Assembly: GCF_000772955.1 (NCBI RefSeq)
Contig: NZ_JPVO01000054.1
Coordinates: 62,001 to 126,000, forward strand
Length of the DNA stretch: 64,000 nt
From: Ureibacillus sinduriensis BLB-1 = JCM 15800
Lineage (GTDB): Bacteria; Bacillota; Bacilli; Bacillales_A; Planococcaceae
Direction of reading: 5' to 3'
Of the stretch, positions 16,503 through 63,240 are shown one piece after another. The translations under genes were made by a program, and so were the position numbers. Position 1 is the first letter of the stretch. Each line of letters starts with the position of its first letter. Under the pieces are notes generated by a model, which ran no database searches, was not told the origin of the DNA, and worked only from the letters and a program-made list of their open reading frames with translations.

Positions 16503-16599
16503 ATACTTTAAGAACAGTAATACTTTGTGTATACAGAGTCTCTTTCCAAATTTGAGAATTGAGACAAAAGAAGCAAAGTAAAAGTGAATAATGTTGGAT

Positions 16600-16880
16600 G
16601 CGTTGAAAAGGAAGAGTAAAATGTTCTTGCTTGCTATAGAGAGGAAACGGTAGCTGAAAAGTTTCTGTGAGCAATCATTTGAAGGTAGCCTTGGAGCAGC
16701 TTTTGTGAAATAGCAGTAGCAAAATGCCGGGAAAACCCCGTTATCTTAATCGAGAGCCGAGAACTTGGTGGAAGTCCTTTAAAATTTAATTGGATGACAC
16801 TAAACTCGGAACTAAAGGTGGTACCGCGAATCAAAACTCCTTCGTCCTTTTATTAGGGCGATAGGAGTTTTTTTATTTTT
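16600..16880 (+). promoter_or_regulatory. T-box leader of valS with a GTA (valine) specifier
   Basis: The T-box sequence AAAGGTGGTACCGCG (16814-16828) is followed by a terminator, AACTCCTTCGTCC paired with GGGCGATAGGAGTT plus a T-run (16834-16880). In Stem I the AGAG motif (about 16640) and the AGTA loop (about 16614) are recognisable. The helix AAGG (16608-16611) / CCTT (16689-16692) places the specifier at GTA (16685-16687), preceded by GAAG and followed by a purine. GTA is a valine codon, matching the downstream gene. Uncharged tRNA(Val) would prevent termination. Confidence 0.92.
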
Positions 16881-16921: not shown

Positions 16922-19573
16922 ATGACAGAACAACAAAACTTATCAATGCCAACAAAGTATGATCCACAAAGTATTGAAACAGGACGCTATGAATGGTGGC
17001 TGCAAGGGAAATTTTTCGAAGCACAGCCGGAAAGTGGGAAACAACCTTATTCCATCGTAATTCCGCCTCCCAACGTAACAGGTAAATTGCACCTAGGGCA
17101 CGCTTGGGATACAACATTGCAGGATATCCTCATTCGTATGAAACGCATGCAAGGCTATGACGCTCTTTGGTTACCAGGGATGGACCATGCCGGCATCGCG
17201 ACGCAAGCAAAAGTAGAAGAAAAACTTCGTGCAGACGGCATTACACGCTATGACTTGGGGCGCGAAAAGTTCCTTGAAAAAACATGGGAATGGAAAGATG
17301 AATACGCCAGCCATATACGCGCACAATGGGCAAAACTTGGTCTAGCATTAGACTATTCACGTGAACGCTTCACCTTGGATGAAGGTTTATCAGATGCGGT
17401 AAAAGAAGTATTTGTCAAATTGTATGAAAAAGGGTTAATTTACCGTGGCGAACGAATTATAAACTGGGATCCGGCAGCCAAAACGGCATTATCCGACATC
17501 GAAGTAATCCATAAAGAAGTAGAAGGTGCTTTCTACCATATGGAATATCCACTAGCCGATGGATCTGGCAAACTGCGTGTTGCTACAACGCGCCCGGAAA
17601 CGATGCTTGGGGATTCTGGCGTTGCTGTACACCCGGAAGATGAACGTTATAAACATCTAATTGGGAAAACAGTGATTCTTCCAATCGTTGGCCGGGAAAT
17701 TCCGATTGTTGCAGATACGTATGTTGACATGGAATTCGGAACAGGGGTCGTTAAAATGACGCCTGCGCATGATCCAAATGACTTTGAGGTTGGTAACCGT
17801 CATAACCTGGAACGTATCCTTGTTATGAATGAAGATGGTTCAATGAATGATCTAGCCGGAAAATATGCCGGAATGGATCGTTTCGAATGCCGAAAACAAA
17901 TTGTCAAAGATTTGCAAGAAGCTGGCGTATTAGTTGAAATTGAGCCGCATGTTCACCAAGTAGGCCACTCCGAACGTTCGGGTGCTGTTGTTGAACCTTA
18001 TCTATCAGCGCAATGGTTTGTTAAAATGGGGCCGTTAGCTGAAGAAGCTTTACAAATGCAAAAACAAGAGAACGAAAAGGTAAACTTCATACCGAATCGC
18101 TTCGAAAATACTTATAACCGTTGGATGGAAAATATCCATGACTGGTGTATTTCCCGTCAATTATGGTGGGGGCATCAAATTCCGGCTTGGTATCATAATG
18201 AAACAGGCGAAATTTATGTAGGAAAAGATGCACCTAGTGATGCCGAAAATTGGACGCAAGACGAAGACGTGTTGGACACTTGGTTCTCCTCGGCTCTATG
18301 GCCGTTTTCGACTATGGGCTGGCCGGATACAGAAAATGAAGAATTCAAACGTTACTATCCGACAAGTGCATTAGTTACAGGCTATGATATTATTTTCTTC
18401 TGGGTATCACGCATGATTTTCCAGGGCAAAGAATTTACTGGTGAACGTCCATTCAAGGATGTATTAATCCATGGTTTAATTCGTGACGGTGAAGGACGCA
18501 AAATGAGTAAGTCACTTGGAAATGGTGTTGACCCGATGGAAGTTATCGACCAATACGGTGCAGACGCGCTTCGTTATTTCTTGGCGACAGGTTCATCCCC
18601 AGGTCAAGATTTGCGTTATACAACCGAAAAAGTAGAATCTGTTTGGAACTTTGCCAACAAGATTTGGAATGCTTCCCGTTTTGCCCTCATGAATATGGAA
18701 GGGATGACATACGAAGAAATCGATTTGACGGGAAATCTAAATGTTGCCGATAAATGGATTTTAACTCGATTGAATGAAACAATTGAACGTGTGACAGCTT
18801 TATCCGATAAATACGAGTTCGGTGAAGTCGGTCGTGAGCTTTATAACTTCATTTGGGATGACTTCTGTTCTTGGTATATCGAAATGGCGAAGTTGCCACT
18901 TTATAGTGAAGATGAAGCGGCAAAGAAAACAACTCGCTCAGTATTAGCTTTTGTTCTGGATAACACAATGCGACTGCTTCATCCAATGATGCCGTTTATT
19001 ACCGAAGAAATTTGGCAGCATCTTCCTCACGAAGGGGACTCGATTACAGTGGCGGCATGGCCGACTGTAAAAAAAGAGTTCAATTTTGCTCAAGATGCAG
19101 AGAGCATGAAGCTTCTGACTGAGATTATCCGTTCTGTGCGCAATATCCGTGCGGAAGTTAATACGCCGATGAGTAAAAAAGTGCCTTTGACAATTTCAGC
19201 AAATGAAGAACTAATTGCCGGTATTCTGGAAGCGAATAAAGGATACATCGAAAAATTCTGCAACCCTGAAACGTTGACGATTGGTACTTCTTTGGAAGCG
19301 CCAGCCCAATCGATGACGGCTGTAGTAACAGGCGCTGAAATCTACTTGCCGCTAGCAGGATTGATTAATCTGGATGAAGAGATTTCACGTCTTGAGAAAG
19401 AGCTGGAAAAATGGGCAAAAGAAGTGAAGTTGGTAAATGGCAAGCTTTCTAACGAAAAATTCGTTTCAAAAGCACCAGAGAGCTTAGTTGCAAAAGAACG
19501 TGAAAAACTAGCGGAATATGAAGAAAAACACGAAGCAGTTGAAAAACGTTTGGCAGAGTTAAGAAGTATGTAA
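16922..19573 (+). CDS. valS: valyl-tRNA synthetase
   Basis: Class I synthetase charging tRNA(Val), with editing of threonine. 883 residues, the full family length. The HIGH motif is HLGH in [15 protein letters not shown] (about residues 44-58), and the KMSKS motif is in [14 protein letters not shown] (about 523). The CP1 editing domain lies between, and a C-terminal coiled-coil tail ends the protein (about 815-883). The ATG at 16922 has AAGGAGGAG upstream. It is controlled by the T-box leader directly before it. Confidence 0.98.
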
Positions 19574-19660: not shown

Positions 19661-19776
19661 TTTAAAGGAGAAGTGGTTGATTTGCCTCGCTTTTAATAGC
19701 AAGGGCGCAAGGCTTCTTTGATTGGAGTTATAAAGAAGGCTGGCGCTGTGTTTAGCCGCACCCGTACTGCCGATAA

Positions 19777-20490
19777 GACAAAAGGAAGAGTGAAGGCGGC
19801 AGAATTGTCTAATAGAAACGGGCTAATAGACAGAAGGAAGGGCTGAGCCAGGGAGAGTGTCCAATAGAAGTGGTCTAAAGGACAAAGCTAAGTACCAAGG
19901 CAGGCAAATTGCCTAATAGGAGCAGTCTAATAGACAAAGCGAACAGCCAAGCCGGGAAAGTGTCCAATAGAAGTGTCCTAAAAGACAAAGCGGAGAATCA
20001 AGGCAGGCGAATTGTCCAATAGAAGCAGTCTAATAGACAAAACGAACGGCCGAACGGGGAATAGGAGTGGTCTAAAGGACAGAATGAACGGTGAAGGCGG
20101 CAAAAATGTCCAATAGGAACGGTCTAAAGGACAAAGCTAAGTACCAAGGCAGGCAAATTGTCTAATAGGAGCAGTCTAATAGACAAAACGCATAGTGAAG
20201 GCGACAGAACTGTCCAATAGAAGTGGTCTAAAAGACAGAAGGGACGTCTGAGCCAGGGGGAGTGTCCAATAGGAGCAATCTAAAAGACAAAACGAAGCAC
20301 CAAGCCAAGGAGACTGTCCAATAGAAGTAGCTTAATAGATATAACAAAGAATCACCAGGCGAATTGTCCAATAAAAACAGTGTAAAAGCCACACAAAATG
20401 CCAAGCTAGGAAAACTATCCAATAGATAAAGCTAATGAGACAGAACCAACTCACGAGCCAGGTGAATTTGTCTAAGTGAAACGATCCACT
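19777..20490. repeat. 14-unit imperfect tandem array, 52-bp period, with TGTC-N19-GACA modules
   Basis: Units start at GACA-like sites at 19777, 19829, 19881, 19933, 19984, 20036, 20078, 20130, 20182, 20234, 20286, 20338, 20388 and 20439. Ten steps are 51-52 bases, nine of them exactly 52 except single-base losses; one unit (20036) lost about 10 bases and the 3' units are degenerate. A typical unit is GACAAARCGAA, then about 18 bases rich in CAAGGCRGGCRA, then TGTCCAATAGAAGYRGTCTAA. From each TGTC to the next GACA the offset is 23 bases at every scorable junction. No reading frame is preserved because 52 is not a multiple of three. It fills the gap between valS and folC. Confidence 0.93.
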
Positions 20491-20679: not shown

Positions 20680-21978
20680 ATGTTTCATTCCATAGAAGAA
20701 TGTACCGATTTTATTTTTAAGTTAAGGGCAAGTACATATAAAGGCAAGCCTCTCGAGGCGGTACGAAGAATATTATTTGAATTGGATAATCCGCATGAAA
20801 AAGTGAAATTCATCCATTTTGCTGGTTCGAACGGAAAGGGATCGACGCTTAATGCGACACGGGAAATATTAATGGAGCATGGAATGCGTATAGGGGCATT
20901 TATATCGCCTCATCTAGAACGGGTGAATGAGCGTATCACGATTGATAACGAGCAAATAACGGACGAAGATTTTCTTAAATATGCAAACTCGATCGATCAT
21001 ATTATTCGAACGAAGCTGGATGGGCAGTATCCTAGTTTTTTTGAAATAATGACCGTTATTGCATGCTTGCACTTTGCGAATGAAGCGATGGATGTTGCTT
21101 TAATGGAAACCGGCATTGGTGGCCGAATCGATTCGACCAATATCATCACCCCGGAAGTTTCGGTAATTACGACAATATCTCTGGAACATACAGAGATATT
21201 GGGGGATACCATTGAAAAAATAGCTTATGAGAAAGCCGGAATTGTGAAACCCGGAAAACCGGTAGTAGTAGGCGTCAAGCAATCGGAAGCAAGGGAAGTC
21301 ATAAAACAAAAAGCAATCCAATGTCATTCTGAATGCTTCTCTATAAACGAAGAAATAATGATTAATAACATAAAGAAAGGGTCCCCACAATATTTCGATT
21401 TTTCTTTTGGGGACGTTGAGATCAATCACATTCCCATAGCAATGCAAGGACACCATCAAATACACAATGCCGCACTTGCGATTGCCGCTTCATATTTGTT
21501 TGATCCAGCAATTGCTGAAACTACAATTCGCAACGCATTAAGAAAGGCGCGATGGGAAGGGCGTTTCGAAAGGTTGAACAACCAAGTCATTATTGATGGG
21601 GCCCATAATTCTGAAGGAACTGAAGCTTTAATAAACACCTTGATTGAACTATACCCTGACAAAAAGTATAGGTTCATTTATGCTGCCCTCCAAGATAAGG
21701 ACCATGCAGTCAGTATCTCCATGATGGATCAGGTAGCCGCTTCAATGAGCTTTACACAAATAGACTTGCCAAGAGCAGCAAAGGCAGCCGTACTCGCATC
21801 TCAGTCAAATCATTCAAATATCCGTTTTAGTGAAAATTGGGAACAGGTAATAAAGGATGAGATTACTACTTTGCAAGAGAATGAACTGTTGATTATAACA
21901 GGATCTTTATATTTTATAGCTGAAGCACGGAAATTTTTAGTAGAGAAGGTTGAAATACGTGATACCGAGATTGGATGA
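20680..21978 (+). CDS. folC: folylpolyglutamate synthase/dihydrofolate synthase, first paralogue
   Basis: Mur-ligase-like ATP enzyme that adds glutamate to dihydropteroate or folates. 432 residues. ATP loop GSNGKGST (about 50), SPHLERVNERI (about 78-88), the Mg/metal region METGIGGRIDSTN (about 140-152), SLEHTEILG, and DGAHN (about 308) are intact, so it looks fully functional and the more canonical of the two copies. The ATG at 20680 follows AGGAG. The second folC starts inside its last codons. In B. subtilis this position holds a single folC followed by comC, which is missing here. Confidence 0.93.
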   Translation: MFHSIEECTDFIFKLRASTYKGKPLEAVRRILFELDNPHEKVKFIHFAGSNGKGSTLNATREILMEHGMRIGAFISPHLERVNERITIDNEQITDEDFLKYANSIDHIIRTKLDGQYPSFFEIMTVIACLHFANEAMDVALMETGIGGRIDSTNIITPEVSVITTISLEHTEILGDTIEKIAYEKAGIVKPGKPVVVGVKQSEAREVIKQKAIQCHSECFSINEEIMINNIKKGSPQYFDFSFGDVEINHIPIAMQGHHQIHNAALAIAASYLFDPAIAETTIRNALRKARWEGRFERLNNQVIIDGAHNSEGTEALINTLIELYPDKKYRFIYAALQDKDHAVSISMMDQVAASMSFTQIDLPRAAKAAVLASQSNHSNIRFSENWEQVIKDEITTLQENELLIITGSLYFIAEARKFLVEKVEIRDTEIG

Positions 21979-31680: not shown

Positions 31681-31786
31681 GTTAGTTTGTAGCACCCGTG
31701 CTACAACCGCTCTGGGAAGGTCTTAAGCATCTTAATGATCACCTTTCATTACAGGCGAGTCTGAGTCTAAGAGGAGGTGCATTTTA
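31681..31786 (+). promoter_or_regulatory. L21 leader (ribosomal protein autoregulatory leader)
   Basis: A 105-base leader before rplU with a stable hairpin, TTGTAGCAC (31687-31695) / GTGCTACAA (31698-31706), and conserved-looking CGCTCTGGGAAGGTCTTAAG and GGCGAGTCTGAGTC blocks. The position matches the known L21 leader of Bacillota, which is thought to mediate control of this operon by its own product. I have not folded it formally. Confidence 0.65.
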
Positions 31787-47034: not shown

Positions 47035-47291
47035 ATACATGTCCATTGGTTTGACAGCCAGCGAATCGTGTCTCATAATGGGTTTTGTACATAAACTATG
47101 CCCGTTGGTTTTTATCCATTAAACTACGGGGAAATTGATATTTCGATAGAAAAAGCTAGATGTATGTTGCAAATATCCGAAAGAATTATATTAAGACATG
47201 CACAATCGATTTAGCACGCACGTGTGGTAAATCGTGTTTTTCTATTGTGTATACAGCAAAAGGTATACACAAATTTGAGGAGGATTTACAG

Positions 47292-49559
47292 ATGAAGCTT
47301 AAAAGCCGTATTTTTACTTTTGTACTTGTGGCAGTAGTGCTATTTGCCGCAATGGGTGCAACAGTACAAGGAGTTTTGAAGGACGTAAAACTCGGGCTTG
47401 ATTTACAAGGTGGGTTTGAAGTTTTATATGAGGTCGAATCACTAGTTGAGGGCCAGAAAATTACGCAAGATGTTTTGTCTGACACGACGACTGCGCTCGG
47501 AAACCGAATTAACCAATTCGGGGTAAGTGAACCGAGTATTCAAGTTGAAGGTGAAGATCGAATTCGTGTGCAACTTGCAGGAATCGACGATCAGTCTTCC
47601 GCTCGTGAATTGTTATCAAGTACGGCGAACTTAACATTCCGAGATGTAAATGACAATATTTTATTAGACGGGACAGATTTAAAAGAAGGTGGGGCAGCTG
47701 CTTCATTTGATCAGCAAAATCGTCCGATTGTAACACTTACTTTAAAAGATGCTGCTAAGTTTGCAGAAGTGACGAAGCAAGTATCTCAAATGGGACCTGG
47801 TCAAAATCTTTTAGTTGTTTGGATGGATTTTGAAGAGGGCGTAGATTCGTATGCCGCAGAAGCACAAAAAGAAGATCCGAAATTCATATCAGCAGCCGGA
47901 GTAGATCAAGTATTAAATACGACGGATGTTATGATTAGTGGGAACTTTACTGTTCAAGAGACAAAAGACTTTGCCAGTATTTTAGATGCAGGGGCATTAC
48001 CGGTTAAGTTAACGGAAATCTATTCAACCTCCGTCGGTGCACAATTTGGTGAAGAAGCATTGAACAGCACTGTGTTTGCCAGCGTGGTCGGGGTAATTTT
48101 AATTTTCATCTTCATGCTCTTTTACTACCGTTTGCCTGGATTTGTATCGATCATTACTTTAACGGTATTTACTTATTTGGTCTTAACAGTATTCAATGCA
48201 ATAAATGCGGTGTTAACATTGCCAGGTATTGCGGCACTTGTGCTTGGTATCGGGATGGCCGTGGATGCCAATATCCTGACTGCCGAACGTATACGTGAGG
48301 AGCTGCGTGTCGGCAAGTCCATTAAAGAGGCTTACCAACATGGATCAAAACAGTCCTTGACTGCTATTATTGATGCCCAGCTAACAACTTTATTGGCTGC
48401 TGCTGTACTATTCTTCTTTGGTACAAGCTCGGTTAAAGGGTTTGCTACAACATTGATGATTACAATTGTATTAAGTTTCGTAACGGCCTTGTGGTTATCG
48501 CGGATACTACTAGGTTTACTGGTGAACAGCGGGTATTTCAACAGCCCTTCACTATACGGAGTACGCAAATCGAAGGTTCATGATATATCGGAAGGAATTG
48601 AAACACTGGATTTATCAACGAATTTCGATCGATTGGACTTTGTTAAAAATCGCAAAAAATTCTATTCAATATCCATTGTGATTCTTATTGTCGGGGCTGT
48701 AATCATTGGTATCTTCAGGTTGAATCTAGGCATTGATTTCTCAAGTGGTACCCGTGTAGAAATTCTTGCTGATGAGCAAATTACACAAGAAGAAGTAACA
48801 GCCTATATTGACGAAATCGGCTTCCCTTCTGAAAAAGTGATTATTTCTGGCGAAGACCAAAAATCGGCAGTCGTTACTTATAAAGAAGACTTAACACAAC
48901 AAGAAATACTTGATTATAAAGCGGCGGTAAAAGCGGATTATGGTCACGAACCAAGTGTAAGTACAGTATCGCCTACAGTAGGGCAAGAGTTAGTCATAAA
49001 CGCTATAAAAGCCTTAGCTATCGCTGCACTTGGAATAATCATTTATGTGGCGCTAAGATTTGAATGGCGCATGGGTGTCGGGGCAATTGTTTCCTTATTG
49101 CATGATGTATTCTTTATGGTAGCAATTTTCAGCTTCTTCCGATTGGAAGTGGATATTACATTCATTGCAGCTATCCTCACAATCGTTGGTTACTCGATTA
49201 ACGATACGATTGTTACGTTTGACCGTATCCGTGAAAACGTCAATCGAAAAGGTACAATTGCAACAAAAGAAGAGTTGGCTGGCATTGTGAATAAATCACT
49301 TCGCCAAACTATGGGACGTTCAGTGAATACCGTATTGACTGTAATCATAGTGGTAGTTGCCTTATTGTTATTTGGTGCTCCAGCAATCCAAAACTTCTCG
49401 ATTGCTTTACTGATTGGTTTAATTACAGGGATGTATTCATCAATTTGTATAGCAGCCCAAATTTGGTACACTTTAAAATGTCGTGAAATGGACAAAAAAG
49501 GTACTGTTGTCGAGAGTAAAGAGAAAAAACAATGGGGTTCTGACGAGCCGGTTGTATAA
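47292..49559 (+). CDS. secDF: fused protein translocase subunit SecDF
   Basis: 755-residue single polypeptide joining SecD and SecF, the form typical of Bacillus relatives. Twelve membrane spans are expected: SecD with GLDLQGGFEVLYEVE (about 35-49), its large external domain and five spans including GMAVDANILTAERIREE; SecF with FRLNLGIDFSSGTRVEI (about 477-493) and GYSINDTIVTFDRIREN (about 634-650). It uses proton motive force to pull proteins through SecYEG. ATG 47292 follows GAGGAGG. Its stop codon lies within the first bases of a perfect 23-bp palindrome. Confidence 0.97.
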   Translation: MKLKSRIFTFVLVAVVLFAAMGATVQGVLKDVKLGLDLQGGFEVLYEVESLVEGQKITQDVLSDTTTALGNRINQFGVSEPSIQVEGEDRIRVQLAGIDDQSSARELLSSTANLTFRDVNDNILLDGTDLKEGGAAASFDQQNRPIVTLTLKDAAKFAEVTKQVSQMGPGQNLLVVWMDFEEGVDSYAAEAQKEDPKFISAAGVDQVLNTTDVMISGNFTVQETKDFASILDAGALPVKLTEIYSTSVGAQFGEEALNSTVFASVVGVILIFIFMLFYYRLPGFVSIITLTVFTYLVLTVFNAINAVLTLPGIAALVLGIGMAVDANILTAERIREELRVGKSIKEAYQHGSKQSLTAIIDAQLTTLLAAAVLFFFGTSSVKGFATTLMITIVLSFVTALWLSRILLGLLVNSGYFNSPSLYGVRKSKVHDISEGIETLDLSTNFDRLDFVKNRKKFYSISIVILIVGAVIIGIFRLNLGIDFSSGTRVEILADEQITQEEVTAYIDEIGFPSEKVIISGEDQKSAVVTYKEDLTQQEILDYKAAVKADYGHEPSVSTVSPTVGQELVINAIKALAIAALGIIIYVALRFEWRMGVGAIVSLLHDVFFMVAIFSFFRLEVDITFIAAILTIVGYSINDTIVTFDRIRENVNRKGTIATKEELAGIVNKSLRQTMGRSVNTVLTVIIVVVALLLFGAPAIQNFSIALLIGLITGMYSSICIAAQIWYTLKCREMDKKGTVVESKEKKQWGSDEPVV

Positions 49560-49612
49560 TACAGTAAAAAAGACAAAGTGCGAAATTATGCACTTTGTCT
49601 TTTTTACTGTAT
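49559..49612. terminator. perfect 23-bp hairpin after secDF
   Basis: The left arm 49559-49581 and right arm 49590-49612 are exactly complementary (core AAAAAAGACAAAGTGC / GCACTTTGTCTTTTTT) with loop GAAATTAT. The A and T runs inside the stem make a terminator functional on both strands. The first base of the stem is the last base of the secDF stop codon. Confidence 0.85.
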
Positions 49613-49719: not shown

Positions 49720-49918
49720 GACAAAACGAGATAGTGGAGCGAATGAAGTGTCTCGAAATAGGGAATATAGTGACAAAACTGATAGGGTAAAGAGATGAAA
49801 GTGTCACGAAACCAGACGTTTTAAGACAAAACGAGTTAGTCGAACTAATGAAGTGTCACGAAACGGGGTTTAATTAGACAAAATTGGTAAGCTGGATCAG
49901 CGAAGTGTCTCGGTTTTA
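49720..49918. repeat. 4-unit imperfect tandem array with 52-bp period, related to the 19.8-20.5 kb array
   Basis: GACA starts at 49720, 49772, 49825 and 49877 (steps 52, 53, 52); TGTC starts at 49749, 49802, 49854 and 49906 (steps 53, 52, 52). Every TGTC-to-next-GACA offset is 23, the same as in the larger array. The typical unit is GACAAAACGAG, about 11 bases, then AATGAAGTGTCACGAAAC and about 13 bases. The rest of 49613-50058 is AT-rich; TATAAT at 50031-50036 is a likely -10 for recJ. Confidence 0.88.
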
Positions 49919-50058: not shown

Positions 50059-52392
50059 ATGATACAATCAACCAAACAATGGGTTGTTGGACAACCTGAT
50101 GAAAACTTAATAAAACAACTGCAAAATGAATTGAATATATCCTCGTTAGCAGCAAAAATATTGGCTGCCAGAGGCTGCACAACGATTGAAAAGGCAAGAA
50201 AAATCCTCAATATGGATGAAACAAACCTGCACTCCCCCTATCTATTAAATGGTATGGAAGAAGCAGTGGAACGAATCGAAGCGGCTTTAAACAACGGAGA
50301 GAAAATCCTGATTTACGGGGATTATGACGCCGATGGAATTACTAGTACTACGGTTATGATGAATGTATTGCTTGATTTAGGGGCGGATGTCGATTTTTGC
50401 ATCCCAAATCGATTTACACACGGTTATGGACCGCATGAAGAATTATTCCGGAAAGCATTCGACGAGGGCGTACAATTAATCATAACTGTCGATAATGGCA
50501 TTAGTGGGATTGAACCTGTTCGACTGGCTAAGGAGCTAGGAATGGATGTCATTATAACAGATCACCATGAAGCTGGTGATATATTGCCGCCAGCAGATGT
50601 GATCATTCACCCTAGATTGCCGGAGGGACACTATCCATTTGGCGAACTGGCAGGGGTAGGAGTTGCCTTTAAATTAGCGCATGCATTATATGGAGAAGTC
50701 CCTAAGCATTTGTTTGAGCTAGCGGCCATTGGGACGGTGGCTGATTTGGTGCCCTTAGAAGGGGAAAATCGCTACATTGTACAGCAGGGCATTAAACAGT
50801 TGAAAATCTCCCCAAATCCATGGATACGCGCCATATGTGAAGTAACAAGTGTGAAACAGCATGAAATCGATGAGGACGCGATTGGATTCTACTTTGCGCC
50901 TCGGTTAAATGCAATAGGTAGATTAGGGGATGCCGATCCGGGTGTCGCTTTCCTAATGAGTGAAAATGATTTGGAAGCGGCAACAGGCGCGAAACTATTA
51001 AACCAAAAGAACGTTGAACGAAAAGAAATCGTTCATACGATTACCGAACAGGCGATTGAAATGATTGAAAATGACCCGTCAATCTCGAATTCACTTGTTT
51101 TGGTCATAGCTAAAGAAGGATGGAACCCTGGCGTTATCGGAATAGTTGCCTCGCGCTTAGTTGAGAAATATTATCGCCCTGCCATTGTATTATCTCTTGA
51201 TTCGGTCAAGGGCACCGCAAAAGGATCCGGACGTAGTATTGAAGGCTTCCATCTATACCACGAGCTAGCAAAAAACCGTGATATACTGCCGCATTTTGGT
51301 GGGCATCCCATGGCGGCAGGAATGACTTTTGGAGCAGAACATGTAGATGAGCTTCGCAACCGTCTTCACCAGCAGGCTACGAACTGCCTGAACGATGAAT
51401 TATTGACTCCGAAGCTTGCGATCGATGTACCTTTGGAAATTAGTGAAGTAACTGTTGAAGCAATTGAGGAAATTAAAAAACTAGGTCCATTTGGAACTGG
51501 CTTTTCTAAACCAATCTACGCACTACAGAACGTTCAAGTACGTTCCATGAGAAAAATTGGTGCAGGAGAAAGCCATTTGAAGCTGGAATTGGAGGATGCT
51601 CATGGTTTCATCGATGCAATTGGATTTGGCAAAGGGTATTTGCATGATGAAATTACCTACGGAGTTAAGCTTTCGTTTGTAGGGGATCTCCAAATCAATG
51701 AATGGCAAGGGAAGAAAAAGCCTCAATTAATGATTACAGATGTTCAAACAAATGAATGGCAGCTTTATGATTATAGAGGGAAAAACCAAGCGCAAAAGTG
51801 GCTACACACATTACCGAAAGAAACAACCGATTTCATCGCGTTCCGACAATCAACTATACAAGCTTTCGAGGGACAAATTGCAAACCCTATCCGACTTATA
51901 GCAAACGAGGATGAACTGCAAAACCTTTCTCCCAATATGGTGCTGTTGGATTTACCAAGAAGTGCGCAAATTTTGGAGAAATTAATTGCACAAGGAAGGC
52001 CGAACCGAATTTATGCAGTATTCTACACACCCGAGTCCAAATATTTCAACGGTATGCCTACAAGGGAGCATTTCGGTTGGTATTATAGCTTTTTGAAAAA
52101 ACGTCCTAATTTCAATCTCCAAATGCATATTGAACAATTGGCGCAACATATCGGCTTAAATATTGAAGTAATTAAATTCATGACAAACGTGTTTTTTGAG
52201 CTAGGTTTTGTTACAATAGAAAATGGTCTGACAACAGTAAATAGTAATGTACCAAAACGATCACTTTCCGAAGCGGATGTTTATAAGCAAAGGATTGAAC
52301 AAATCGATTTGGAACAACAACTTTTGTATGCACCATATTTGGAACTAAAACAATGGTTTAACGAACGAATGAGGGAATATAACTATTCCTAA
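50059..52392 (+). CDS. recJ: single-stranded-DNA-specific exonuclease RecJ
   Basis: 5'-3' exonuclease for recombination and repair. 777 residues. DHH-phosphoesterase motifs are visible: [14 protein letters not shown] (about 90-103), [16 protein letters not shown] (about 166-174), and the DHHA1 region [15 protein letters not shown]...[13 protein letters not shown] (about 393-425). The C-terminal extension (about 560-777) is the Bacillota-specific domain. The ATG follows GAGGAAGTGAG. It is followed by apt 16 bases later. Confidence 0.96.
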
Positions 52393-59220: not shown

Positions 59221-59598
59221 TATTATATAGCGTAATGAATGCCATTGACCAAGAAAGTAGGAATTACCTCTGTAGGCTAGAGAGGGAAAGACTGGGCTGA
59301 AATCTTTCCTGCTGCATGTAAGGACGAACAACACTTGAGAGGCTCTTTTTCGAAAAACAGCAAATGTCTAGTAGGGAAAGACGGAGACGGCCGTTATCCG
59401 TTTACGAGAGGATGCACTAATTTTTTCGGATTGATGTACGTCAATTTTTCGAAGTCCGGAAAAGAAAAAGGCATCAATTCACCATTTATGGTCGAATTGT
59501 GTTTTTTTATGCATCAACTAGGGTGGAACCGCGGAAGTAATTATAAGCTTTCGTCCCTTGCATATAGCAAGGGGCGGGAGCTTTTTTATTTTTTATAG
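59221..59598 (+). promoter_or_regulatory. T-box leader of hisS-aspS
   Basis: The T-box AGGGTGGAACCGCG (59520-59533) is followed by a strong terminator, AAGCTTTCGTCCCTTGC / GCAAGGGGCGGGAGCTT plus T-run (59546-59590). Stem I elements: the helix CAAG (59250-59253) / CTTG (59334-59337), the AGTA loop (59256-59259) and the AGAG motif (about 59280). By the same geometry that gives GTA for valS, the specifier is AAC (59330-59332, asparagine), preceded by GAAC and followed by A. GAC (59323-59325) and CAC (59332-59334) are nearby or overlapping alternatives. Confidence 0.88.
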
Positions 59599-63038: not shown

Positions 63039-63240
63039 AACACGAATCCTGAAGTGTTAGTGAAGCTTTCATACTGTTTTGACCGAACAACAAATCGTTG
63101 GGAATTCATATTTTATCTTGGCGAACAAGCCCTGCAAATGGACGAGGGAAGTTTAAAGAGGTAAAGAGAATACCCACCTGTGATTATAGCGGGTTCAAAA
63201 CGATGCTTTCCCTGCTTACGGCATATTGGGATTCGTCATG
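63039..63240 (+). ncRNA. ssrS: 6S RNA (6S-1/BsrA-like)
   Basis: Located between aspS and tcdA (yrvM), where B. subtilis encodes 6S RNA. The closing stem ACGAATCC (63042-63049) / GGATTCGT (63229-63236) brackets about 180 bases that can fold as a long interrupted rod. The start TCCTGAAGTGTTAG closely resembles the B. subtilis 6S 5' end as I remember it. 6S RNA mimics an open promoter and sequesters sigma-A RNA polymerase in stationary phase. It has its own promoter and terminator. Confidence 0.83.

What the first reader, a model, noticed from the sequence alone, without database searches (positions are those of the whole stretch)
49720..49918. A second array 29 kb away shares period and an invariant TGTC-N19-GACA module
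The array upstream of recJ has four units at 52-53 base steps and differs in most of its sequence from the first array. In both arrays the distance from TGTC to the next GACA is exactly 23 at every scorable junction (three in this array, twelve in the other), while the distance from GACA to TGTC varies (28-30). The conserved part is therefore a 27-bp inverted half-site pair, TGTC-N19-GACA, not the whole unit. This fits a dimeric protein site or a structured RNA/DNA element under spacing constraint.
Basis: partly seen in the sequence, partly recalled or inferred. Interest (0 to 1): 0.85.

Follow-up and report, generated by a model that had tools for sequence, protein, structure and literature searches.

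The report
Nuclease genes with phased DNA arrays
The repeat array in front of recJ is one scattered copy of a bacterial repeat family whose likely source arrays sit right beside genes for an unstudied nuclease, with repeat lengths that fall on whole turns of the DNA helix, which points to a nuclease-plus-repeat system that seems not to have been described.

Summary
The array is real and belongs to a genome-wide family: TGTC-N19-GACA occurs 262 times in this genome against 27 for the reversed control, and tandem pairs occur in 13 of 25 genomes of the genus with a control of zero. Motif-blind arrays show a dyad-symmetric core and a 51-52 bp step. TGTC is not the essence: sister arrays keep the step with other words.

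The partner was found by neighbourhood. Genes for a ~300-residue NERD nuclease with four invariant cysteines lie directly beside 51-53 bp arrays at 18 of 18 loci from 18 genomes in nine families of Bacilli. All 10 array-positive genomes of 398 carry the gene, against 8 of 388 others. Related NERD clades carry arrays of about 20.6, 41 or 62 bp; periods cluster on multiples of 10.3 bp. Of 50 scattered arrays tested, 29 match an array beside a NERD gene, 24 of them best in their own genome (2.2 expected).

I propose that NERD dimers bind these helically phased sites and spread or maintain them, as RAYT does REPs. Binding and spreading are inferred, not shown.

The parts
49720..49909 (+). Array 2 (the finding): four units, TGTC at 49749, 49802, 49854, 49906, between secDF and recJ; degenerate member of the family
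   Evidence: an orthologous degenerate array is in G236. Best match among 36 NERD-adjacent arrays: L384 of G255 (E 4.8e-7), second L128 of this genome (E 2.5e-4)
49749..49775 (+). 27-bp dyad core, unit 1
49802..49828 (+). 27-bp dyad core, unit 2
49854..49880 (+). 27-bp dyad core, unit 3
19776..20373 (+). Array 1: about 12 units of the same family, between valS and a folC-like gene
   Evidence: (Tandem Repeats Finder); best match is the array beside this genome's NERD gene L126 (E 1.5e-12); orthologous array in G236
47160..49559 (+). secDF, gene on the left of array 2 (context)
   Evidence: SecD/SecF models
50059..52392 (+). recJ, gene on the right of array 2 (context)
   Evidence: RecJ_OB, DHH, DHHA1
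16922..19573 (+). valS, gene on the left of array 1 (context)
   Evidence: tRNA-synt_1, Val_tRNA-synt_C
20680..21978 (+). folC-like gene (Mur ligase models), gene on the right of array 1 (context)
   Evidence: Mur_ligase_M, Mur_ligase_C

Best explanation
The two window arrays are dispersed, non-coding members of a two-part system: (i) a ~300-residue protein with a NERD (PD-(D/E)xK-like) nuclease domain, a four-cysteine probable zinc ribbon and a C-terminal tail that by eye looks like a helix-turn-helix; (ii) a tandem array whose unit is a 27-bp imperfect dyad plus a ~25-bp linker, repeated every 51-52 bp (five turns of B-DNA). A source array lies directly beside the nuclease gene, usually at its 3' end; arrays of like letters lie scattered in gene gaps. 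Most likely mechanism: protein dimers bind the dyads side by side on one face of the helix, and the nuclease activity provokes copying of array DNA by repair or recombination, so that arrays grow, are homogenised and appear at new places. It would work like RAYT/REP, with another enzyme and phased tandem sites. SHOWN from sequence: gene-array pairing, period going with protein clade, letter match of many scattered arrays to gene-adjacent arrays of the same genome, dyad conservation profile. INFERRED: binding, dimerisation, cleavage, dispersal. My odds: pairing real 0.97, recognition 0.8, active dispersal 0.5.
For: NERD is among the commonest families in 127 array-flanking proteins: 7 members, one ~300-aa family. 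A profile of 18 such proteins run on 398 genomes hits at E<=1e-80 in 18 (next best 2e-53); all 10 genomes with at least 2 tandem TGTC pairs are among them, 8 of 388 others are (Fisher 1.8e-15); the 8 have 52-bp arrays of other words: 18 of 18 loci have a 51-53 bp array beside the gene, 17 at the 3' side. 55 of 78 NERD proteins of 276-345 aa have a 3' array against 24 of 670 control ORFs; leaving out those among the seven that led me there, 52 of 72. Periods of 64 NERD-adjacent arrays cluster on multiples of 10.3 bp, resultant 0.925. On a tree of 96 NERD proteins period goes with clade; the short-NERD clade of 20 has no arrays. Of 50 scattered arrays 29 have a hit below 1e-6 to 36 NERD-adjacent arrays, in 24 the best is of the same genome (2.2 expected). 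D76, K91 and the four cysteines are invariant in 34 proteins. Dyad profile. Protein and array similarity correlate, r 0.30, highest for the zinc-ribbon region 0.315.
Against: No biochemical evidence. 21 of 50 scattered arrays have no hit below 1e-6: 8 of 14 from this genome, 9 of 9 from G493 (only one of at least five G493 NERD arrays was in the reference), 2 of 3 from G236, 1 of 18 from G255, 1 of 1 from G350. The finding's own array matches a G255 array best, its own genome's second; profile scores of window arrays against this genome's two NERD arrays are negative. 9 of 50 NERD proteins of 276-312 aa lack an array, one of them (L377) inside the 52-bp clade. That clade's basal fork is weakly supported (80/45), and L441 (51 bp, 2.3 copies) groups with 41-42 bp genes. 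In this genome, G236, G241 and G257 arrays lie 5' of the gene. The correlation is modest. No filled/empty junction was resolved, so active dispersal is untested.
Confidence: 0.68

Rival explanations
1. The NERD protein and its phased arrays form a host-serving nucleoprotein system (chromosome organisation, repair, or defence in which arrays tether or restrain the nuclease); spread of arrays is secondary.
For: Arrays shared by G000 and G236 at two loci, core positions kept between copies, placement in convergent gaps 22 of 61 against 14 of 134, several paralogues per genome. Weak below-cut-off similarity of the NERD part to defence proteins MADS6 (E 2e-4 to 1e-3) and PglW (E 0.004 to 0.008).
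Against: Patchy: 12 of 25 genomes of the genus have no tandem TGTC pair, though TGTC-based counts miss other words. Arrays in one genome split into types matching paralogues, which fits selfish families better than one genome-wide function. No PADLOC or NCBIfam model above cut-off.
Confidence: 0.25
2. Ordinary tandem satellites grown by slippage and unequal exchange, with no dedicated protein; the NERD neighbourhood is coincidental or indirect.
For: Within-array homogenisation and gain or loss at loci.
Against: Same step and dyad in nine families with unrelated letters; 18 of 18 NERD loci; 55 of 78 against 24 of 670; period going with protein clade.
Confidence: 0.05
3. Array of RNA hairpins (guide-like or structural RNA), transcribed and folded.
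For: Arms complementary between arrays, 205 of 318 cells against a swap mean of 138, maximum 173 in 5000 (not corrected for relatedness). PMC10910872 (passages and section 15) lists NERD as a putative CRISPR auxiliary and reports transcribed non-CRISPR repeat arrays.
Against: Inside units paired double changes (28 against 13.4 by shuffling) are enriched about as much as unpaired ones (28 against 15.6); one-sided changes break the pair 247 times against 66 to G-T. Steps of whole DNA turns have no reason in RNA. Both dyad and linker repeat, so there are no distinct spacers. No Rfam match to the arrays.
Confidence: 0.05
4. The arrays are sites of a Tn3-like serine resolvase.
For: Likeness of TGTCYRATA to the res half-site (recalled); a 185-aa resolvase gene lies 124 bp from an 18-unit array in G000.
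Against: That neighbourhood holds only in G000 and G236, not in 10 other g1 genomes examined. Array-positive G580 has only a longer YneB-like hit and G493 only hits of 217 aa or over 500 aa. No systematic TGTC/GACA sites upstream of small resolvase genes.
Confidence: 0.02

Closest known systems
REP/REPIN repeats with RAYT (TnpA-REP) transposases (PMC3116915, PMC8266576, PMC3733652: search listing and start of abstract only)
   Same: A gene with adjacent palindromic repeats and many like repeats scattered in gene gaps; types matched to paralogues; vertical inheritance.
   Different: The gene is a NERD nuclease, not an HUH/Y1 transposase (RAYT enzyme class recalled); repeats are tandem and helically phased; no GTAG/CGTC tag at the palindrome foot.
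CRISPR arrays and other nuclease-linked repeat arrays (PMC10910872, passages and section 15 only)
   Same: Regularly spaced array beside a nuclease gene; NERD is listed there as a putative CRISPR auxiliary.
   Different: No hypervariable spacers: dyad and linker both repeat; scattered solo arrays; step tied to DNA turns. I could not see that paper's supplement.
Partition sites such as sopC of plasmid F and replication iterons (recalled, not fetched)
   Same: Tandem dyads or iterons at near-integral helical steps bound cooperatively.
   Different: Chromosomal, many loci and many letter types per genome; neighbour is a nuclease, not ParB or Rep.
NERD domain proteins, PF08378 (PMC9040797, passages only)
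   Same: The protein is a member (above Pfam cut-off).
   Different: That paper says the role of NERD in bacteria had not been studied before it; it studies a membrane protein, SmdA, and no DNA array in the passages seen.

Membership tests
NERD-domain proteins (PF08378) | Match to PF08378 above the curated cut-off | tested here: met
   7 of 7 proteins, E 4e-16 to 4e-20
NERD-domain proteins (PF08378) | PD-(D/E)xK-like catalytic residues kept | tested here: met
   34 proteins: D76 34, K91 34, E89 33 (one D); that they form the active site is recalled knowledge of the fold
NERD-domain proteins (PF08378) | Nuclease activity | not testable with these tools
   needs an assay
RAYT/REP systems | HUH/Y1 transposase beside the repeats | tested here: not met
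   the recurrent neighbour is NERD; no Y1 model among the 25 commonest of 242 families shown for 127 flanking proteins
RAYT/REP systems | GTAG or CGTC tag at the palindrome foot | tested here: not met
   outer words are TGTC/GACA, TGGC/GCCA, GGTC/GACC
RAYT/REP systems | Scattered repeats like those beside the gene of the same genome | tested here: met
   24 of 29 arrays with a hit below 1e-6, of 50 tested
RAYT/REP systems | Mobilisation of repeats by the gene product | not testable with these tools
   needs an experiment
CRISPR arrays | Identical repeats with unrelated spacers | tested here: not met
   linker identity between neighbouring copies 0.70-0.91
Tn3-family res sites | Cognate resolvase gene beside or with the sites | tested here: not met
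Structured RNA repeats | Compensatory changes inside the helix | tested here: not met
   paired 28 against 13.4, unpaired 28 against 15.6
ParB/sopC-like partition sites | Bound by a ParB-type partner in partition | not tested
   no ParB search was made against the arrays

The most novel reading that the evidence does not exclude
NERD nucleases are the enzymes of an undescribed class of self-dispersing genetic elements: a nuclease gene plus a tandem array whose repeat length is set by the protein in whole helical turns (2, 4, 5 or 6), like a molecular ruler, with array families scattered across bacterial chromosomes.
Probability: 0.5. Interest if true: 0.95.

Novelty: categorically new. Interest (0 to 1): 0.92.

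Why it matters
It gives a concrete DNA partner to a widespread nuclease domain whose role in bacteria was stated to be unstudied until recently (PMC9040797, passages), and an owner to intergenic tandem arrays that occur by the dozen in some Bacilli. Period that goes with protein clade and with the helical repeat makes a direct prediction: each NERD clade should bind its own array with fixed phasing. If the enzyme copies its array, this is a new route by which DNA repeats arise and spread in bacteria.

Tried and rejected
Serine resolvase partner: pursued first because of the TGTC half-site (recalled); dropped.

RNA hairpin: between-array complementarity looked supportive; the within-unit test did not.

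Untranscribed placement: the terminator scans of both gaps found no terminator-like site. An inverted repeat with a T run after secDF (about 49568-49606) is seen by eye only, so I do not claim that the arrays are untranscribed.

Strand polarity: purine-rich linker strand agrees with local GC skew in 62 of 70 arrays, but 75% of 134 control gaps agree too, so it may be composition bias.

Faults met: one search's '39 spanned by ORF' is an artefact of masking with N (redone with stop-filled masks). One search's BLAST failed on bad parameters, so its zero hits are no result (repeated). One array is counted twice (L148 and L296 are the same DNA). In one search the 19 distinct periods are not independent (multiples reported by the repeat finder and neighbouring integers); the independent base periods are about four (20.6, 41, 52, 62).

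Limits: TGTC-based genome counts miss arrays with other words, so they are lower bounds. Class-level results rest on a draw of 398 genomes. The E<=1e-80 line was set after seeing the results, but lies in a gap between 4e-99 and 2e-53. Loci behind searches were mostly picked by the TGTC motif, apart from the 60 unselected stretches, which enter. The searches for print cover an open-access library only; their listings showed no paper on these arrays or on NERD with such arrays, apart from the passages named from PMC10910872, whose supplement I could not see.

Full report
WHAT IS THERE. The window lies in a genome of the Ureibacillus/Lysinibacillus group: the nearest named RecJ records are Ureibacillus chungkukjangi, 86%, and Lysinibacillus fusiformis S4 5007-2, 85%. 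Array 2 sits between secDF and recJ, array 1 between valS and a folC-like gene. The window holds 11 TGTC-N19-GACA, all in the two arrays, against 0.84 expected.

GENOME AND RELATIVES. The own genome has 262 such places against 27 for the reversed pattern, in arrays of up to 18 units at the loci sampled. In the genus 13 of 25 genomes have tandem pairs (1 to 460); 0 of 236 other genomes searched in the order do; the control is 0 in all 261. In a class-wide draw of 398 genomes the same architecture appears with quite different letters in other families: G350 515, G493 357, G572 61, G388 54, G398 27, G604 17, G509 12, G580 4, G417 2. G520, G540 and G608 have single hits that I leave unresolved. 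The control gave one hit, in G262.

ANATOMY. In 60 arrays (664 units, seeded by the motif) the core length is fixed (offset 23 in 524, 22 in 2) and the linker varies by a base (29 in 402, 28 in 106, others rare); the modal step is 52 in 45 arrays and 51 in 15. Among arrays found by Tandem Repeats Finder alone (65 of period 50-53 with at least 3.9 copies, one counted twice), 57 have TGTC-N19-GACA in the consensus. In these, identity between neighbouring copies is 0.94-0.98 at TGTC and GACA, has inner peaks at positions 8-10 (0.89-0.93) and 17-20 (0.89-0.94), dips at 6-7 and 21-22 (0.84-0.87) and in the centre (0.74-0.84), and is 0.70-0.91 over the linker. That profile is two-fold symmetric. Arms are complementary between arrays (205 of 318 cells against 138 by swapping), but changes inside units are not specifically compensated. 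I read this as two equal half-sites of a dimer, not a stem.

TGTC IS NOT THE ESSENCE. In unselected DNA (20 stretches of 20 kb per genome) I found 7 arrays of period 52 in G255 (6 of the TGTC type), 8 in G493 (5) and 2 in G238 (0). G237 and G238 have 52-bp arrays with TGGC...GCCA or GGTC...GACC around the same kind of dyad. G493 and G238 also hold a class of 40-42 bp arrays.

FINDING THE PARTNER. I scanned 127 proteins flanking arrays against Pfam. Of 242 families (25 shown) ABC transporters lead (8 members; the overlapping models SMC_N and AAA_21 have 8 and 7), then NERD with 7. ABC transporters are common genes; NERD genes number 1-12 per genome here. The seven are one family of about 300 residues; two of them (L126, L160) look like the same locus in sister genomes. 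I then fetched 41 further NERD genes from seven array-bearing genomes. Those of about 300 residues mostly lie directly beside a 52-bp array, whatever its word; other NERD genes have none, or arrays of another period.

INDEPENDENT TEST. A profile of 18 such proteins was run on the class draw of 398 genomes, the same handles. It hits at E<=1e-80 in 18 genomes of 9 families; the next best is 2e-53. All 10 genomes with at least two tandem TGTC pairs are among the 18; 8 of the other 388 are (Fisher 1.8e-15). Those 8 are no exceptions: at each of the 18 best loci, the 8 included (one locus, G000's, was known before), a 51-53 bp array lies beside the gene, on the 3' side in 17; two arrays (L421, L428) have only about two copies. 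Related clades carry arrays of 41-42 bp (L438-L440, L443, L445), 62-63 bp (L442, L444, L447) or multiples of about 20.6 bp (22 of 29 tree rows). On a tree of 96 NERD proteins, 37 of 38 rows of the 52-bp group have the 51-53 bp array or a multiple of it (L377 has none); its basal fork is weakly supported (80/45). L441, with 51 bp, groups with 41-42 bp genes and is an exception. The 20 short NERD proteins have no arrays.

PHASING AND ADJACENCY. One period per distinct NERD gene with an array (64) gives values from 41 to 185 that cluster on multiples of 10.3 bp (resultant 0.925); for the 19 distinct values none of 20000 random sets does as well, though these values are not independent. 55 of 78 NERD proteins of 276-345 aa have an array at the 3' end and 7 at the 5' end, 16 have none, against 24 of 670 ORFs of at least 200 aa with a 3' array in the unselected stretches. 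Without those among the first seven, 52 of 72.

LETTERS MATCH THE PARALOGUE. In G255 seven further arrays match the array beside NERD gene L384 and ten further array segments the one beside L308 (two arrays are split by an insertion); L385's matches only itself and L296:12043 none. Over 50 scattered arrays tested against 36 NERD-adjacent ones, 29 have a hit below 1e-6 and in 24 the best hit is of the same genome (2.2 expected). The five others are L129 and window array 2 (G000), L309:18709 (G255), L158:3371 (G234) and L244 (G236). Twenty-one arrays have no such hit, among them 8 of 14 from G000 and 9 of 9 from G493. Window array 1 goes to this genome's NERD gene L126. Window array 2 is degenerate: best hit L384 of G255, second L128 of this genome. 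Protein and array similarity correlate modestly (r 0.30 over 34 pairs), most for the zinc-ribbon region.

HISTORY AND PLACE. Arrays at both window loci are shared with G236 and absent from G237 and G246; G241 lacks the one before recJ, and its folC has another gene upstream. So they are inherited, and gained or lost. Among arrays that could be classified, 22 of 61 lie in convergent gene gaps against 14 of 134 control gaps (p 4.5e-5) and 7 of 61 in divergent ones against 28 of 134 (p 0.16), which looks like placement away from promoters.

MECHANISM. I infer that the protein binds its dyads as a dimer through the zinc ribbon and tail, in register with neighbours every five turns, and that its nuclease activity leads to copying of array DNA: the RAYT/REP logic with another enzyme. 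Pairing, phasing and letter match are shown; binding and copying are not. A host role (nucleoid, repair or defence) is the main rival.

NOVELTY. Four proteins tested show no NCBIfam or PADLOC match above cut-off or of note (weak NERD-part similarity to MADS6 and PglW); the profile has no PDB relative by sequence; a phage family of unknown function, phrog_21557, matches (E down to 1e-12), yet one protein (L308) found no match in the plasmid and phage collections. The literature searches listed no description; the library holds only open-access papers. PMC9040797 (passages) says the NERD domain had not been studied in bacteria before. PMC10910872 (passages and section 15) lists NERD as a putative CRISPR auxiliary and reports other repeat-array systems, whose supplement I did not see.

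Noticed in passing
L145:3735-4940, L152:3693-4928, L154:3442-4647, L151:3140-4096, L307:11972-13204 (G255): IS256-type (Mutator family) transposase genes lie between array segments at five places; in 3 of the 4 insertions read, the element enters 8-9 bases after TGTC (read by eye).
   Followed up: partly
L381, L387, L392, L394-L396, L400, L402-L404, L413-L415, L418, L419, L370, L371, L373, L376, L449: A second NERD group (mostly 313-345 aa) carries arrays built on ~20.6-bp direct repeats (periods 21, 42, 82, 92, 103, 113, 185).
   Followed up: partly
L438-L440, L442-L445, L447: NERD relatives in families f42 and f9 carry 41-42 bp and 62-63 bp arrays directly at the gene's 3' end.
   Followed up: partly
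L296:12043-12214 (G255): A 52-bp array of 3.3 copies with another word that matches none of the 36 NERD-adjacent arrays below 1e-6.
   Followed up: no
array linkers, 70 arrays: Linkers are strongly purine-skewed (mean absolute skew 0.37 against 0.075 in control gaps); the purine-rich strand follows local GC skew in 62 of 70.
   Followed up: partly
ends of contigs C1, C5, C7, C10, C14, C16, C19 of G000: Several contigs begin or end in or next to array units, so the arrays probably break the assembly.
   Followed up: no
L137:4785-5342 and L155:4166-4717: A conserved 183-185 aa serine resolvase with an HTH_7 domain, in a conserved neighbourhood, beside an array in G000 and G236 only.
   Followed up: yes
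window 16594-16852, 59236-59561, 63043-63236, 31695-31772: Two T-box leaders, a 6S RNA and an L21 leader.
   Followed up: no
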